From: Tachypleus tridentatus
Taxonomy: Eukaryota > Arthropoda > Merostomata > Xiphosura > Limulidae
NCBI RefSeq assembly: GCF_004210375.1
Contig: NC_134837.1
Span: 159,133,310 to 159,197,309, forward strand
DNA length: 64,000 nt
Direction of reading: 5' to 3'
The position numbers were made by a program, and so were the translations under genes. The notes below the pieces were generated by a model, which saw nothing but the letters and a program-made list of their open reading frames with translations, was not told where the DNA came from and searched no databases. Within the stretch, counting starts at the first letter, position 1, and each line of letters begins with the position of its first letter. Positions 8,693 to 59,965 of the stretch are shown here, in pieces.

Positions 8693-8977
8693 GGCCCGGC
8701 ATGGCCAAGCGCGTTATGGCGTGCGACTCGTAATCCGAGGGTCGCGGGTTCGCATCCCCGTCGCGCCAAACATGCTCGCCCTTTCAGCCGTGGGGGCGTT
8801 ATTATGTGACGGTCAATCCCACAATTCGTTGGTAAAAGAGTAGCCCAAGAGTTGGCGGTGGGTGGTGATGACTAGCTGCCTTCCCTCTAGTCTTAGACTG
8901 CAAAATTAGGGACGGCTAGCATAGATAGCCCTCGAGTAGCTTTGTGCGAAATTAAAAAAACAAACAAAAAACAAACC
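8693..8977 (+). repeat. SINE-1 copy, young, with 11-bp target duplication
   Basis: Near-consensus copy: GGCCCGGCATGGCCAAGCG head, GGTCGCGGGTTCGCATCCCC, the complete body, and the tail ending in (CAAA)-rich sequence. AATAAATATAA directly precedes (8682-8692) and follows it (8978-8988), a perfect duplication that shows retrotransposition and a recent date. Confidence 0.95.
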
Positions 8978-30129: not shown

Positions 30130-31150
30130 TTTTTACAAATAACAAATTGGAAATTTAAAAACTTACAAATCGTAAAAAAGTAACAAACAAGATATTATGT
30201 ATTCAAACTACAAGCCCCTATTTTGGCTCCATACTGTTACCTAGAATGACATTTTTTTACGATCCCTCTTTGTAGCTTTTGTATTTATTTTCTTTACTGT
30301 TTTTTATGATCGATTATGGGCAAAACATTTTTTTTGAAACGGTAGCTAGCTTTATAAATTGTAATGATAGGGAACAGCTAGTTGTTAGCTTATAAGGTTC
30401 ATAATGATTTATAGTAGCTACTGATTATTTAATCGCATTAGTTCGAGATGGACAATGTTAAGCTGCAGCTAGAGATTTGTTTGAGAATATAGTGAGCATT
30501 TACAGTTTCTGTGTATCTGAAACCTCTATACACAATGTGTAGCAATGGACAAATGTACGCCTAGACTAAGACACAACCCCATAAAACGCAAACAAAATTT
30601 TACTAGTAGAAAAGCAGCCCTTTCAAACAAAACATAGCTTTAAATAAACCTTCGTGTATTTTAAAGTAATTATTCTACAACGTGTGCAATAAAGTTTAAT
30701 ATTATGTGTATCGATTTTGTTTTACTACTATACTACACACACAGTATAAGGGTTCCCTAAAGACACCATTTGTAGAGTGTACAAAGTATTGAGTAACCAT
30801 ACGTCACAGTCATTTAGTCCTCATCTATTATTATTCGCTCTTAATTCTTGTGTTTATCCTGTATGTTTTTAAAGGAACACCGGTTATTTGTTAAAAAACT
30901 AATTTCAAGGGATAATAATAACATCATTTATACTATAATTATGATGTTTTTTAGCTTATTTAAAATAGAAAAGAAACAAATCGACTTTTCAATACTCATA
31001 CGACCTTTGCAGTACGTTACTTAGTAGCAATATACCAAAAGTGGTAAAAGAAAAGTAATAACAAAAGGAAGATTTACAAACAAGCCGTTTTGACGAGATT
31101 CTGTTTTCCTTGTCTAACATGCGTGGGATTTGTTCATTTTTATATGGGTG
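30130..31150. repeat. Dispersed ~1-kb repeat R, copy 1 (empty site)
   Basis: Non-coding sequence that aligns, diverged but colinear, with 54990-55856 plus 58583-58930. Anchors include TTTGTTTGAGAATATAGTGA at 30477, GCCTAGACTAAGACACAACC at 30569 and TTTTTAAAGGAACACC at 30866. At the place where copy 2 holds the DNA transposon, this copy is continuous (about 30826-30850). It lies 0.9-1.9 kb upstream of the Gsx start codon. The nature of the repeat is unknown: no termini or protein were found. Confidence 0.7.
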
Positions 31151-42129: not shown

Positions 42130-42252
42130 CCCCCCAGTGGCTCAGCGGTATGTCTGCGGACTTACAACGCTAAAAACCGGGTTTCGATACCCGTGGTGGG
42201 CAGAGCACAGATAGCCCATTGTCTAGCTTTGTGCTTAATTCAAAACAACAAC
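42130..42252 (+). repeat. SINE-2 copy (tail A)
   Basis: Near-consensus: GCCCCCCAGTGGCTCAGCGG, CTTACAACGCTAAAAACCGG, TTTCGATACCCG, GCACAGATAGCCCATTG and GCTTTGTGCTTAATTCAAAA. Confidence 0.92.
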
Positions 42253-48598: not shown

Positions 48599-48868
48599 GG
48601 CCTGGGATGGCCAAGCGTATTAAGGCGTGCGACTCGTCATCTGAGGGTCACGGGCTCGCATCCCCATCGCGCCAAACATGCTTGCCTTTTCAGCCGTGGG
48701 AGCGTTATAATGTGACGGTCAATCCCACTATTCGATGATAAAGAGTAGCCCAAGAGTTGGCGGTGGGTGGTGATGACTAGCTACCTTCCCTCTAGTCTTA
48801 CACTACTAAATTAGGGACGACTAGCACAGATAGCGCTCGAGTAGCTTTGTGCGAAATTCCAAAACAAA
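48599..48868 (+). repeat. SINE-1 copy
   Basis: Near-consensus plus-strand copy from GGCCTGGGATGGCCAAGCG to GAGTAGCTTTGTGCGAAATTC followed by CAAAACAAACAAAG. Confidence 0.92.
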
Positions 48869-50602
48869 CAAAGAAACACTTGAATAACCTTCAGATTTTT
48901 CTTTTTGTTAAAACGAAGTTTGTCCCTATGTAATTTACCGGTGCTTTCATTTTTCTAGATTTCAAACTTACAGATTCTCAAAAACTGTAGAACATTTATT
49001 TCAATTACAAAATATCTCAAGTGATCAAGTGACCTTTAGGAAACTTATTTAACGTAATGCATGTTTTCTACGGTTGCTACGATAAATTTGTTAATAGGTT
49101 GCGCTAAGTTCAAAATGCACGCGTCCTTTGAAATATAAATAACATATATACTTAGAGAGAGGTGGGAGGAATTAGCGTATAACATTTCAATATGTCGGTA
49201 GCTAACTTGATGATTGGATCCATCTAACACACCACCAAGTTCGTGTTATATTTATAATTCATGTTTTAAATCTATAAATTTGAAAATAATAGTGTTTTTT
49301 AAATTGTTTCAAACTTTGTTGGGCAACAGCATACTTTTAAATTCGTTGATAAATTTATATTTTGATTCTGACTTAAATATTTTGGTCTTTATCTGTTTTA
49401 TGTTGGTCTTAAATAAAAATTAGAAATTTTTGAGCAAGATGTGATTCGCCAAAATTATATTCAAATTTAAGTAAAAATCAAGTTTAAATAGAAGTAACGC
49501 TGCTACTCAGTCTTACCAGCCAATGACAGTTAAGCATAACAAATGAATTATTATGTAACTATACCAATAAGTGCGGAGACTATATTTTCATAAAAAGTAT
49601 TTTACTCATATGAAACAGCCACGTTTTAAAGACAGCCACAGCATTGTTCACTCTTAGCTACACACTTCATGCTCCAAACTAAGCAAAAGCAGAAAGCCAT
49701 AATTGAACAAAAAAAATCGAAAGAAATTATGATGTAAAATATTTGCAATTAAACTTGACCAGGATTTGGATTAGTAAAACCAAATTCTAAAGAAGTTGAT
49801 TGCCACGACCCCTATATCGATAATATTGGTTAAGCTAAAGAGAAATAAGTATTAAACTAAAAGAAAGCTCACACCAACACTTACAAGTTTGTGAATATGC
49901 CAAAAGAAATTACAGTCGTTTTTTTTTTTTTTGTATATTTACGTTGAATATTTCATTTCTTTTCCAACCGAACATTATTCACATATATAGATTAATTTTG
50001 GTCTAAATACGGTAAAGTAAATAAAATGGAGTCAAAACTCCAGGATTGTTTATTTGTTGTTTTATTTTTTTTTAATTTTCGTATTCTTAATCTGTAGTCA
50101 ACTTCAACTGTTAATCTGATATTAATTTCCCTTAGTTTTTATTTTTTCTCTATCTCCAACAAGGTGAGGCAAAAAGCTAATGTTACTTGGATGTTCCTAT
50201 CTTATAAACAAATATCTATCATGTTTAATATTATTTCTCTTGCAGTATAATAAACGTAGTTTCTCAAAGACACTTTCCTCATACTTCAACGTATTTGTCC
50301 AGATGATGTAAAGCACTCTGATATAAAGTCCTCTATGATAAAGTTTATGTACCTCTCTTCACCCTCAAAATATAAAGGTACTCCTACTTTCTCCGCGAGT
50401 GGATAATGCTTCGTACGGGTGAAGTGATTGGTTGTCTAGTAAGAAAGCTTGACAGCAAAAGAAATTGAATGTGCAGAGGATAACAGGAAAAAGAAACAAA
50501 GATGTCTCTCCATCGAAGTAAAGTTCATATTGTTAACTAACAAAGTATTTTTTATGTGTTATTGGAGAAGTTTATTCCATAAGTAATGCAGTTCATCAGG
50601 CG
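48869..50602. other. No gene seen
   Basis: AT-rich, with T runs at 49919 and 50066. No repeat recognised up to the Penelope inverted arm. Confidence 0.5.
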
Positions 50603-54556: not shown

Positions 54557-55696
54557 TTTTGTTATGGGAAAATACAATATCAGAAATAAAGATTTGATCT
54601 GCAGTTTCCTTTCTTTGCAACCTTGTCACAATTTGCACTTCACGTTAACATAATCTTTTTCTACCTGTGCGAAATATAATTTCCCAGTTAATTGGACAGT
54701 ATCCAAAATGCTATAACAATAACTGATTAAGCTCAGTAGTTTTGATAAATGTCACGTTGGGCTGTAATTTGATTTTCAACTTTCTTTTAATTAAGGATTA
54801 AGTAGGTAAAAAAAAAAAATCAGATTTACCTTTTATTTGTCCCAGATTACTGTCTAGGAGATATTTCACATATTACCAGGAATGGTCAGGTGGTCTGGAC
54901 CATGATGGAAGCCAATCGTTTATCTGTAATGATACTTATATGAAGTACGAACATTTCAGTGTTGTGATGTTAAATTCTCAAAGCTAGCGAAGCAACTGAA
55001 AAATAAGCTTACGAGATAATAACAAATTAGGAATTAAAAAATTGCAAATAGGAATGTAGAAAAATAAGTAAACAAAGCTTCAGATACCGTAGACAGTGTC
55101 AATCGAATCCTTATTTTAATTTCATGCTGTTACCTAGAATTACACTTAGCGTATTCAAAATAGGGATTTGTAGTTTGAGTAAATAATTGCAACATTATCC
55201 CCTTATGTTGGTCTGTTTTTTATGCTCAATTATAAATAAAGATTACATGATATGGCAGCTAACTTTACATATCGTAACAATAGTAAATATAGCTAGAAAC
55301 TAGCTGATACGGGTTCATGATGATTTGCTGTAGCTATTGACTGTTTGATCACATTAGTCCGAGGTGTAAAGTGTTAAGCTGTAACTGTAAGGTTTCATAG
55401 AAATTTGTTTGAGAACATAGTGAACATTTGTAGTTCCTCTGTTACTAAATTCTCTCTATATATAATGCAAAGCAATACGCAAATATATGCCTAGACTGAG
55501 ACACAACCACAATTAAGTGCATATAAAATTCTACCAGTAGGAAAGCAGCTTTTTCAGATAAAACATATAGTCTAAAACATCAATTTACGTTAATTATTCT
55601 ATGAAGGTGTTTAATAAAATTTAATATTATGTGTATTGATTTTTTTACTCTTTCATTTCATACATAATATAGGAGCTGGCTTCCTAAAGACGACTC

Positions 55697-55790
55697 CCTC
55701 CGTAGCACAGCGGTAGTTCTATAGACATACAACGCTAGAAACCCGTGGTGAGCAAAGTTTTGTGCTTAACTACAAACAAGCCCTAAAGAC
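55697..55790 (+). repeat. SINE-2 copy, deleted, inside repeat R copy 2
   Basis: CTCCCTCCGTAGCACAGCGG head, ACAACGCTAGAAACCCGTGG (box B lost), and GTTTTGTGCTTAACTACAAAC. Copy 1 of repeat R lacks it. CTAAAGAC occurs just before and after and may be the target duplication. Confidence 0.82.
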
Positions 55791-55994
55791 ACTCACTGTA
55801 TAATGTACAAAGCATGGAATATCTAGATGGTACAGTCATCTAATGTTCATACATTACACTTTATAACACAATTTTTACTTTTTCTTATTCCTGGGCAGAA
55901 AGTGTTATTTTCCAATTGCTTATGCCTAAAGTAAATAGAAAAGACCTATTTTTCTCTTTAAACTTTACTTTTGTGATCTGGGTCACGAAATTTT

Positions 55995-56267
55995 GTTTGT
56001 TTTTTGAATGTCGCACAAAGCTACTCGAGGGCTATCTGTGCTAGCTGTCCCTAATTTAGTAGTGTAAGACTAGAAGGAAGGCAGCTAGTCATCACCACCC
56101 ACCGCAACTCTTGGGCTACTCTTTCACCAACGAATAGTGGGATTGACCGTCACATTATAACGTCTCCACGGCTGGGAGGGCGAGCATGTTTGGCACGACA
56201 GGGATGCAAACCCGCGACCCTCAGATTACGAGTCGCACGCCTTAACACGCTTGGCCATGCCGAAACC
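55995..56267 (-). repeat. SINE-1 nested in the DNA transposon, with target duplication
   Basis: Near-consensus minus-strand copy. CACGAAATTTT directly precedes (55984-55994) and follows it (56268-56278). The target lies in the left terminal inverted repeat of the transposon, so the SINE arrived after that element. Confidence 0.95.
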
Positions 56268-56499
56268 CACGAAATTTTAAAATTTACCAATTTTCCAGAA
56301 CATTCGACGTATATTCAGTGCTGAGTAGCTGATAGAAAATTTTTTCGAACTTACGAGAATCTTCAAGAACCTTTTAGAATTTCCTAGAATTTTCCATAGT
56401 AATATATATACAGGGGCTCACCGCTCACCAGTGAACGCCTAAGTGAACACATAAACCTATTTGATTTTATCAGAGGTAGTATCAAGATTCTGCAAGTAT

Positions 56500-58310
56500 T
56501 TTCCAGACGTATTCTGCTATGTATGTGGCCAATTTATCAAGACAAGAGCAAAAAGTACCCTGTGACAGCATCAGCTATAATGTGTGAAGCGTACAAGGTA
56601 TATTTCAGCATGTCTGTCGGGGATCAAGACAAACCCTGAGTACTTCATTTTACCCGCGAGTACTGGACAAAAACTCTAGAAGGTAAGACGGACAATTTTT
56701 GCTTGTTTGAATAGTTAGATTTTATATTATACAAATTTTAGACCTTTAAAAGTTTAAAAATCTTTTAATTAGTTTTTAGATTTTCAATAGTATATAAAAA
56801 TAAAAATTTTTTGCATGAGCCTCTTACATATTAGTTGTGGATGAAATAAATTTATTCTTCATAATAACAATTTTATCTTGCTCCTTTTAGGATGGTACAG
56901 AGAGGGAAAGAAAGACATGAAATTCGCTATTCCAAGAATTTGGCCTGAACCCACTGATAACTCAAGCAATTTCTACTTCTGCATAGTGAACCCTTCCAAA
57001 CGTCGGGCTGACAAGAATGCACCTGCTATATGTATCCGGACCTCTCATCATCTATCGCCCCATGCCACATTGCCCTGAGCTCCCTGTACCCACTCCACCA
57101 GAGAGAAAGCAGCCATTCTCAAAAGGGAGCAGCAAATGAGAAGAGGAGGAAGATGTTGAAGATCCAGCTTAAAATTTCAGAGGTGCAGCTGGTGAGAGAA
57201 ATCCATAATACCCGAACCGAAAAGACCTCAATGACTTGATCAGAGATCTTGGTCTAACAATGTCGAATGCCGAACACTTGACATCTAGGCTTGAGGAGTG
57301 GGATTTGTTAGATTAAAGTGTGCAAGTCGCAGTAAGAGGAAGCGTCACTAACATTTTTCAAGCTTCTTCACTCGTCAAGATGGGCTCTGCTTCTGCCACA
57401 ATGTTTCCGGCCTGAGGGAGGCAATTGGAATTGCCTCTAACCCGAACGAGTGGCGCTTCTACATTGACAGCTCATCCAGAAATCTCAAAGCTGTGCTGCT
57501 TCATAACGGGAATAAGTATCCGTCTCTTCCCCTGGCTCATTCGGTGCACCTCAAAGAGGAATACAACAGCGTCAAAACCTTGCTAAAAGCCTTGAAATAT
57601 GATGAGTATGGTTGGGAGGTTATCGGATACTTCAAAATGGTGGCGTTCCTGATGGCTCTACAAGGAAGCTTTACCAAGTTTCCTTGTTATCGTTGCCTTT
57701 GGGACCGCAGCACACTACAACAGGAAGCACAGGCTACAACGGACCAAATTCTCTGTTGGGAAGCACAATGTCAAGTGTGAGCTACTAGTGGACTTCCAGA
57801 AGGTGTTGTTTCCACCATTGCACATAAAATTGGGTCTTATGAAACAATTTGTCACAGCTCCTGATAAGGAGTCTGCAGCCTTCGAGTATCTTCGAGACTT
57901 CTTTCCTAAGCTATCTGAGGCAAATGTCAAAGCTGGTGTCTTCGTTGGACCACAAATAATGAAGATCCTGGAATGCATAGAAATCTCTAAGAAGTTCAGT
58001 AGGAAGGAAAAAAGCTTGGGGCAGCTTTGTCACAGTGGTTTGGGGCTTCTTGGGCAATCACAAGGCCAAAAATTATATGGAACTTTAGAGGCTCTGCTGA
58101 AGAACTTCGGCAAAATGGCGCTTATCTTGATATATTCAAGGAGAACATGGGAGAATACTCAGAGAAGCAAGGCGAACGCTTCCACCAAGATATACTGGAC
58201 TTAGAACGCCGCTATTAAGGAGTGTATAACGTAAACATGATGGGAGACTATATTTGGAGGGTTGATATGTGAAAGTGATTTACATTACAGCCGAAAATCT
58301 CGAAAACTAC
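56500..58310 (+). pseudogene. Unnamed invertebrate multicopy protein, carried by the TIR element; broken
   Basis: Gene-like region on the plus strand belonging to a family I recognise as widespread and multicopy among uncharacterised invertebrate proteins, but cannot name. Exon 1 (about 56500-56682) has FCYVCG and GDQDKP, with a one-base loss near 56538 and an in-frame TGA at 56637. An intron with GTAAGA and CTCCTTTTAG ends (56683-56890) joins CTAGAAG to GATGGTAC in phase. Exon 2 then runs through GWYREGKK, KFAIPRIWPEPTD, YPDL, FYIDSSSRNLKAVLLHNGN-like sequence (57460-57510), HSVHLKEEYNSVKTLL, GYFKMVAFLMALQGSFTKFP, CYRCLW, PPLHIKLGLMKQFV, AGVFVGPQIMK, FKENMG.YSE..GERFHQDI and MMGDYIWG. Several frameshifts separate these blocks. 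Paired cysteines suggest zinc binding. Its place between the TIRs suggests it is the element's own gene, perhaps the transposase; that is inference. Confidence 0.7.
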
Positions 58311-59152
58311 TCACTTCTAAACATTTTTGTTTATTTTTGTATATCTTTAGTATAAATATATGTAAATCTTGGTTCATATGTTGTTTTATTCAGACCTTAT
58401 GTGAATGAAAATGTGCAAATTTGCCCATTTTTACATAGAAAATAGGTTAATTTCTAAATTTCATTATCCAGGACACAAAAGCGAAGTTTGGAGGGAATAA
58501 TGGCCATTTTCTGTACTTTTACAACATAAGTAATTAAGAAATAACACATACTATCCAGGAAAAATTTCGTGTTACATAGTGTTATTTGCTGGTAATTCTT
58601 GTTTCACTCTGTGAGATTTTTAAAGGAACACCATGTATTAATAAAAAGGCTAATTTGAAGAGGTAATAGTAATATCGCTTACACTAGAGTTCTGGCGTTT
58701 TTAGCTCATGTAAAATTTAAAAGAAAACAAATCGGTTTTTCAACCTTTATGACCTTTTCAGTACCTTATTTGGTATTTTGCAAAAGGTTTCGGTGCAATA
58801 TACAAAACCATTTTTGTTGAAGGTTGGTAAGGGAATAATAATAAAATCACAACGTCCCTTATTGAGCGGATTTTGTTTTACTTGTACGCTTAACATGCTT
58901 GCTTTTTTGTGTTTTTTTATATGCTTTAGCTTTTGGGAAGGATATGAGACAGTCCTTTCCGACGCAAATTGCTCATTTACTCAGAACGAAGATTTATAAG
59001 TTAGAAGAATGGAATATCCCTTGTAGTTAATATCATTGGAAAACAAATGAATATGATATGGGTGAAACTGGTACGCCAGTAACGTTCAGAAAGAGACTTG
59101 TACGGAGTGGTTAGCAAAATAGTAACAGCCGTTCACATACCACAGACAACTG

Positions 59153-59689: not shown

Positions 59690-59965
59690 TTTGTTTGTTT
59701 TTGGAATTTCGCACAAAGCTACTCGAGGGCTATCTGTGTTAGCCGTCCCTAATTTAGCAGTGTAAGACCAGAGGGAAGGCAGCTAGTCATCACCACCCAC
59801 CGCCAACTCTTGGGCTACTCTTTTACCAACGAAGAGTGGGATTGACCGTCACAATATAACGCCCCCACGGCTGGGAGGGCGAGCATGTTTGGCGCGACTC
59901 GGGCGCGAACCCGCAACCCTCAGATTACGAAGTGCACGCCTTAACGCGCTAGGCCATGCCAGGCC
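59690..59965 (-). repeat. SINE-1 copy with 11-bp target duplication
   Basis: Near-consensus minus-strand copy flanked by CGATTGTAATG on both sides (59679-59689 and 59966-59976). Confidence 0.95.

What the first reader, a model, noticed from the sequence alone, without database searches (positions are those of the whole stretch)
55857..58582. A TIR transposon with CACT ends, TTA duplication and an intron-containing gene of an unnamed invertebrate family
Seen: ends CACTTTATAACACAA and, inverted, CACTATGTAACACGAA; inward similarity of about 150 bp; TTA on both sides; between them a broken gene with a clean GTAAGA...TTTTAG intron (56683-56890) whose removal keeps the frame. Known: proteins with blocks such as GERFHQDI and HSVH(L/M)KE.Y..VKTLL are common as uncharacterised multicopy genes in invertebrates. 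Inference: such genes may be the transposase or cargo of a CACTA-like DNA transposon, which would explain their copy number.
Basis: partly seen in the sequence, partly recalled or inferred. Interest (0 to 1): 0.82.

Follow-up and report, generated by a model that had tools for sequence, protein, structure and literature searches.

The report
Dead Chapaev3 cut-and-paste DNA transposon
The stretch is a broken copy of a very abundant jumping gene of a known type (Chapaev3), and the supposedly unnamed animal gene inside it looks like the enzyme that once moved it; this is ordinary biology, neatly resolved.

Summary
Window 55857-58581 is one copy of a TIR DNA transposon. Of 50 unique loci fetched with its gene from the same genome, 45 show the 5' end and 45 the 3' end (consensus CACTATGTAAC...GTTACATAGTG). 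Of the 40 with both, 32 have identical 3-bp flanks (18 TTA, 13 TAA, 1 TAG), 27 of 32 inside A-TWA-T. Unoccupied relatives of four other insertion sites fit one copy of the 3-mer; the window's own site is ambiguous. The 18-base TWA+end occurs 6,831 times, its reversed control 2. A roughly 478-bp internal-deletion derivative has spread separately. The consensus encodes a two-exon protein of about 562 aa with D..D..C(2)C..LH..H(4)H..E. This matches the published Chapaev3 group (PMC4079192): CAC/GTG ends, TWA duplication between A and T, the three motifs, and two exons in Merrow/Garfield. It is most likely a Chapaev3 element (CMC group), not CACTA proper, and its gene the transposase. The window copy is dead; copies look like one burst decaying neutrally. 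No sequence or fold comparison with a named Chapaev3 transposase could be made. New member of a known kind.

The parts
55857..58581 (+). whole transposon copy (Chapaev3-type), with a SINE inserted inside
   Evidence: 5' end recognised in 45 and 3' end in 45 of 50 unique loci
55854..55856 (.). left 3-bp flank TTA, read as target-site duplication
58582..58584 (.). right 3-bp flank TTA, read as target-site duplication
55857..55994 (+). 5' terminal region, inverted match to the 3' terminal region
58438..58581 (-). 3' terminal region, inverted match to the 5' end
55995..56267 (.). SINE inserted into this copy; 39 of 40 two-ended unique copies lack it at this place
   Evidence: flanked by CACGAAATTTT
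56476..56682 (+). exon 1 (start codon lost in this copy): Cys-rich N-terminal domain
   Evidence: alignment with consensus
56683..56890 (+). intron GTAAGA...TTTTAG
56891..58320 (+). exon 2, transposase core, broken by stops and frameshifts
57466..57468 (+). first catalytic-type D (FYIDSS), kept
   Evidence: role inferred
57628..57630 (+). place of the second catalytic-type D (consensus GDFKM), now Y
   Evidence: role inferred
57685..57696 (+). C(2)C motif, kept
57818..57823 (+). LH motif (PPLHIKL), kept
58123..58125 (+). remnant of the H(4)H motif: second H is Y here, first H lies in a deletion
58174..58176 (+). last catalytic-type E (GERFHQDI), kept
   Evidence: role inferred
30755..31026 (+). 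unoccupied relative of the insertion site; shows the insertion point but not the duplication, because it reads TTATTATT
   Evidence: 201 of 274 identical with one TTA kept; keeping both TTA scores better

Best explanation
The stretch is a dead copy of a Chapaev3-type cut-and-paste DNA transposon. An intact ancestor encoded, in two exons, a transposase with a Cys-rich N-terminal domain and a DDE core of the CMC/Transib-RAG1 kind. The enzyme would bind the CACTATGTAAC ends, cut the element out and join it to a staggered cut at A-TWA-T, leaving a 3-bp TWA duplication. Shown here: ends, duplications, target preference, unoccupied sites, a star-like set of copies, an internally deleted derivative at several sites that must have been moved in trans, and the motif order in the consensus protein. 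Inferred: which acidic residues are catalytic, the fold, and the chemistry. The 50 copies examined look like decaying fossils.
For: Identical 3-bp flanks in 32 of 40 two-ended copies (shuffled pairings: mean 16.8, maximum 28 in 10,000). A before and T after the duplication in 27 of 32. Unoccupied relatives of the sites of L022, L027, L050 and L061 align better with one copy of the 3-mer than with two, in 1 of 1, 8 of 8, 9 of 9 and 1 of 1 comparisons. 6,831 exact TWA+end matches against 2. About 478-bp derivative with nearly the same internal junction in L072, L074, L075 and L076, with different flanks; 14 of 17 convergent end pairs agree in their duplications. Terminal branches 3.17, internal 0.18. 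Consensus protein with D, D, C(2)C, LH, H(4)H, E. Published Chapaev3 hallmarks: CAC/GTG ends, TWA between A and T, C(2)C, LH, H(4)H, two exons in Merrow (2,451 bp, 78+484 aa) and Garfield (2,289 bp, 78+478 aa). Here: 2,542 bp, about 70+492 aa.
Against: No sequence of a named Chapaev3 transposase could be compared. The consensus has no transposase hit in Pfam (most matches above E 0.1 are filtered out) and no convincing PDB hit (best E 0.43 and 0.27). The one structure model has pLDDT 39.3, useless. Eight of 40 two-ended copies have unlike 3-bp flanks. At the window's own site the unoccupied relative reads TTATTATT and fits better with both TTA kept, so this copy alone does not prove a duplication. 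Three of 17 end pairs disagree, all in the 477-490-bp class. Not every copy is surely independent: L021 and L056 share flanks in a tandem repeat. Most other Chapaev3 genes have one exon. The intron lies about 8 codons earlier than Merrow's published exon lengths would put it. D/D/E assignments are read by eye.
Confidence: 0.92

Rival explanations
1. It is a CACTA/EnSpm transposon proper: the ends are CAC...GTG and the duplication is 3 bp, and the gene is a divergent Tnp2-type transposase.
For: CAC..GTG ends and 3-bp duplication fit EnSpm too, and EnSpm shares C(2)C and H(3-4)H (passages of PMC12730594).
Against: No Transposase_21 match for the consensus protein (limited reach). The nearly fixed TWA inside A-TWA-T, the LH motif, the two-exon gene and its size are described for Chapaev3.
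Confidence: 0.04
2. The gene is cargo or a captured host gene, and another transposase moves the element in trans.
For: The window copy is broken and no intact full-length copy was seen; the loci were fetched with the gene itself, so its presence in them is by selection.
Against: The gene fills most of the consensus element and carries the D, D, C(2)C, LH, H(4)H, E order of a CMC transposase; the consensus leaves little room for another transposase.
Confidence: 0.02
3. It represents a separate, undescribed CMC-clade lineage that shares TWA targeting with Chapaev3 by convergence or distant descent.
For: No Pfam-A transposase model reported a match, and peptide motifs of the family are in none of the papers searched.
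Against: Of the published Chapaev3 hallmarks that could be tested clearly, all were met. A missing Pfam model says little about Repbase, where Chapaev3 is described but which is not held here.
Confidence: 0.02

Closest known systems
Chapaev3 DNA transposons, two-exon lineage (Merrow, Garfield; PMC4079192: passages, part of Table 1 and section 14 seen)
   Same: CAC/GTG ends, TWA duplication between A and T, two exons, about 556-562 aa, C(2)C, LH, H(4)H, short non-autonomous derivatives (GarfieldN1 468 bp; here about 478 bp)
   Different: host differs; 6,831 exact ends here, where the copy numbers in the table lines seen reach 281; consensus 2,542 bp against 2,289-2,455 bp for the full-length ones; intron about 8 codons earlier by the published exon lengths; sequence identity not measured
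CACTA/EnSpm
   Same: CAC..GTG termini, 3-bp duplication, C(2)C and H(3-4)H motifs (PMC12730594, passages)
   Different: no Transposase_21 match reported; nearly fixed TWA target
Transib / RAG1
   Same: D..D..C(2)C..H(3-4)H..E motif order; Chapaev3 is grouped with Transib in PMC4411706 (passages)
   Different: 5-bp duplication in Transib (recalled); no RAG1 Pfam match in the protein or in this genome (where the control genomes rang nowhere either)
Chapaev proper (DUF1280, PF06918, named so in PMC3985635, passages)
   Same: CMC clade, CAC/GTG ends
   Different: no PF06918 match in the protein or in this genome (where the control genomes rang nowhere either)

Membership tests
Chapaev3 | termini 5'-CAC ... 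GTG-3' with terminal inverted repeats | tested here: met
   consensus CACTATGTAAC...GTTACATAGTG; ends recognised in 45 and 45 of 50 loci, a number of them with a changed base in the first or last three
Chapaev3 | 3-bp TWA target-site duplication | tested here: met
   32 of 40 two-ended copies have identical flanks, 31 of those 32 TWA
Chapaev3 | A before and T after the duplication | tested here: met
   both in 27 of 32; published as always
Chapaev3 | paralogous empty sites with a single TWA | tested here: met
   L022, L027, L050, L061 fit one copy better; the window's own site does not decide it
Chapaev3 | transposase motifs D, D, C(2)C, LH, H(4)H, E | tested here: met
   present in that order in the consensus, read by eye; the window copy itself has lost D2 and H(4)H
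Chapaev3 | two-exon gene (Merrow/Garfield lineage only) | tested here: met
   one GT-AG intron whose removal joins the frame
Chapaev3 | phylogenetic placement of the transposase with named Chapaev3 proteins | not testable with these tools
   no named Chapaev3 sequence was available to compare
Chapaev3 | N-terminal Chapa zinc-finger domain | tested here: inconclusive
   Cys pairs at consensus residues 14/17, 61/64, 97/100; only a sub-threshold zf-AD hit
Chapaev3 | RNase H-type DDE fold | tested here: inconclusive
   single-sequence model of window 57352-57711 has mean pLDDT 39.3
CACTA/EnSpm | Tnp2 / Transposase_21 transposase | tested here: not met
   no match reported, at single-sequence sensitivity; the genome search for PF02992 did not complete
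Chapaev proper | DUF1280 transposase | tested here: not met
   no match reported, same limits
Transib/RAG1 | 5-bp duplication (recalled) | tested here: not met
   3-bp duplications

The most novel reading that the evidence does not exclude
The large, multicopy, 'uncharacterised' animal protein family with the block GERFHQDI (recalled, not tested), for which the Pfam copy searched reported no transposase match, is the Chapaev3 transposase throughout. This genome, with thousands of intact ends and a star-like set of copies, holds a further two-exon Chapaev3 family beside Merrow and Garfield, which may have arrived horizontally as those two are held to have done.
Probability: 0.4. Interest if true: 0.4.

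Novelty: new member of a known kind. Interest (0 to 1): 0.3.

Why it matters
It gives a likely function and a name to a gene that would otherwise be listed as an unknown, multicopy gene. It also yields ends, target site and a deletion derivative for repeat masking. Chapaev3 is grouped with Transib, from which RAG1 came (PMC4411706, passages), so a large family of this kind is useful comparative material.

Tried and rejected
Rejected: that the SINE-bearing copies (window and L002/L009) show a SINE carried along by transposition. Their SINEs sit between different short repeats a few bases apart, so these are independent insertions, found together because the query held the SINE. Judged unlikely: a cellular gene or cargo. 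Corrected on re-checking: the paralogous repeat at 30.7 kb was first read as a clean empty site with one TTA; it reads TTATTATT and fits better with both TTA kept, so it does not decide the duplication. A wider look at held sequences found four better sites.

Led nowhere: Pfam on ORF pieces and consensus; PDB sequence searches; relatives in viral contigs and phage records; peptide motifs in papers; RAG1 and DUF1280 in this genome (the control genomes rang nowhere, so absence is not shown). The structure model was too poor to search with, so no fold search was made. began exon 2 one base early; its codon results are discarded and one search replaces them. Its indel list is used.

Full report
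What is there. Window 55857-58581 begins CACTTTATAACACAATTTTT and ends GTTACATAGTG, with TTA on both sides. A SINE sits inside at 55995-56267 between two copies of CACGAAATTTT. An intron, 56683-56890, divides a broken gene. The window lies in an unnamed 2.17-Gb genome of 205 contigs.

Copies. A search with window 57000-58240 gave 46 matches from 40 scored of 5,226 first-look candidates. A search with 340 aa of the consensus gave 121 matches from 119 scored of 22,809 candidates. Thirty loci from each were kept. Of these 60, 10 were dropped because they were the same place fetched twice or shared a 60-mer with another, leaving 50. An end counted as found when the alignment to the consensus came within 15 bases of it; the place was then extrapolated. 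A 5' end was found in 45 of 50 and a 3' end in 45 of 50. Forty have both, and 32 of those 40 have identical 3-bp flanks: 18 TTA, 13 TAA, 1 TAG. Re-pairing the flanks at random gave a mean of 16.8 and never more than 28 in 10,000 trials. In 27 of the 32 the duplication is preceded by A and followed by T. L021 and L056 share flanks within a tandem repeat, so not all 32 are surely independent. The 40 run from 1,479 to 2,838 bp, so many are internally deleted. All loci were fetched with the gene and ranked by similarity, so presence of the gene and the low spread of divergence are in part by selection.

Ends across the genome. TWACACTATGTAACAMAA occurs 3,849 + 2,982 = 6,831 times, its reversed control 2 + 0 times. 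Among the first 100 places listed, 17 neighbouring pairs face each other within 3 kb; in 14 of 17 the implied duplications agree. Ten of the 17 are 477-490 bp long, and the three that disagree are among these ten. Three of the ten were fetched (L074-L076). With L072 they are one derivative that joins consensus position about 126 to about 2186-2191, with different flanks; L076 is one of the three whose flanks disagree. A short element without the gene at different sites must have been moved by an enzyme supplied in trans.

Unoccupied sites. The joined flanks of the window copy align across the junction to window 30755-31026, 201 of 274 identical with one TTA kept. This relative reads CTATTATTATTCGC, and keeping both TTA scores better (194 against 181), so it marks the insertion point but does not show a duplication there (139 against 126). 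Among sequences already held, four other copies have unoccupied relatives that fit one copy of the 3-mer better than two: L022 (1 of 1), L027 (8 of 8), L050 (9 of 9, the element having landed in the common SINE) and L061 (1 of 1). L022's own flanks are not identical (TTA and TAA). These comparisons were chosen by me from 262 spanning matches of 49 two-ended loci, duplicates included; those in the tandem repeat around L021, L026, L040 and L056, and part of the weaker L027 and L050 matches, were not scored.

The gene. The majority consensus of 30 loci, a few of them duplicates, is 2,542 bp without the trailing T. It encodes exon 1 (about 70 aa) and exon 2 (about 492 aa). The majority sequence has one frame break at a run of A whose length varies between copies, so 562 aa is a reading across that run. 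Three Cys pairs lie in exon 1 and the start of exon 2. The core carries, in order, D263, D317, C336/C339, H385 in LH, H489/H494 (H(4)H) and E511 (numbering, which leaves out a few residues at the break). In the window copy the start is lost, 7 codons of the consensus frame are stops, D317 is Y, one H of H(4)H is deleted and the other is Y. Over 50 copies these residues are kept in 41-47 of 49-50, about the average for all codons (0.865), so nothing protects them now. Substitutions from the consensus average 6.3% (5.1-8.6; window 7.6). By codon position they are 6.65, 6.10 and 7.07%, and 5.7% in the noncoding part. Variants shared by 12% or more of the copies fall 56, 39 and 55 on the three positions, a slight lack at the second. 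The tree is a star, terminal branches 3.17 against internal 0.18. I read this as a burst from one source followed by near-neutral decay.

What it is. PMC4079192 (passages, part of Table 1 and section 14 seen) describes Chapaev3 elements with CAC/GTG termini, a TWA duplication always between A and T, paralogous empty sites, and transposases with C(2)C, LH and H(4)H. Merrow and Garfield have two exons, most other Chapaev3 one; short derivatives of 468 bp (GarfieldN1) and 577 bp (MerrowN1) are listed. Merrow_PM is 2,451 bp with 78+484 aa, Garfield_BM 2,289 bp with 78+478 aa. The features that could be tested clearly are met, with some decay. PMC12730594 (passages) joins EnSpm, Mirage, Chapaev, Transib and RAG1 by C(2)C and H(3-4)H between the second D and last E. 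PMC4411706 (passages) groups Chapaev3 with Transib.

What was not shown. No named Chapaev3 protein could be compared. Pfam reported no transposase match (its filters drop most matches above E 0.1), and PDB sequence searches gave nothing convincing. The single-sequence model of the window ORF is unusable (mean pLDDT 39.3). The catalytic role of D, D and E is an inference from motif order. That the 'GERFHQDI' proteins of other invertebrates are this same family is recall, not a result. In the held library, searches for the peptide motifs (none), for Chapaev3 (4 papers, all four seen in passages) and for Chapaev with chelicerate terms (the 12 listed of 495 papers have no 'Chapaev') showed me no account of this element.

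Noticed in passing
window 55692-55790: A second short insert, 77% like window 42131-42178 over 48 bases, lies in the left flank between copies of CCTAAAGAC and is absent from the paralogous repeat at 30.7 kb; insertions are nested here.
   Followed up: partly
window-wide, e.g. 8697-8965, 48604-48869, 59693-59960: The SINE found inside the element has over a dozen other full or partial copies in the 64-kb window, from about 69 to 92% identical in the longer matches.
   Followed up: no
L070 and L071 (C1:918117 and C1:1000451): These loci are 99.6% identical over 2.5 kb in opposite orientation, with signs of a short tandem repeat beside the element: probably a recent duplication of the region, not transposition.
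   Followed up: no
C1:24.16-25.58 Mb (one search list): Nineteen consecutive listed ends are all on the minus strand and all flanked by TTA, within about 1.4 Mb, which suggests a duplicated block holding the element.
   Followed up: no
L021, L026, L040, L056 (C1:183.2 and 183.7 Mb): Copies lie in a tandem repeat with a step of about 42 bases; their shared flanks may reflect the repeat or a duplication.
   Followed up: no
L009 (C13:245027000-245034000): A copy with 5' end but no recognisable 3' end and a large internal deletion; its SINE sits a few bases from the window's SINE site, an independent insertion.
   Followed up: yes
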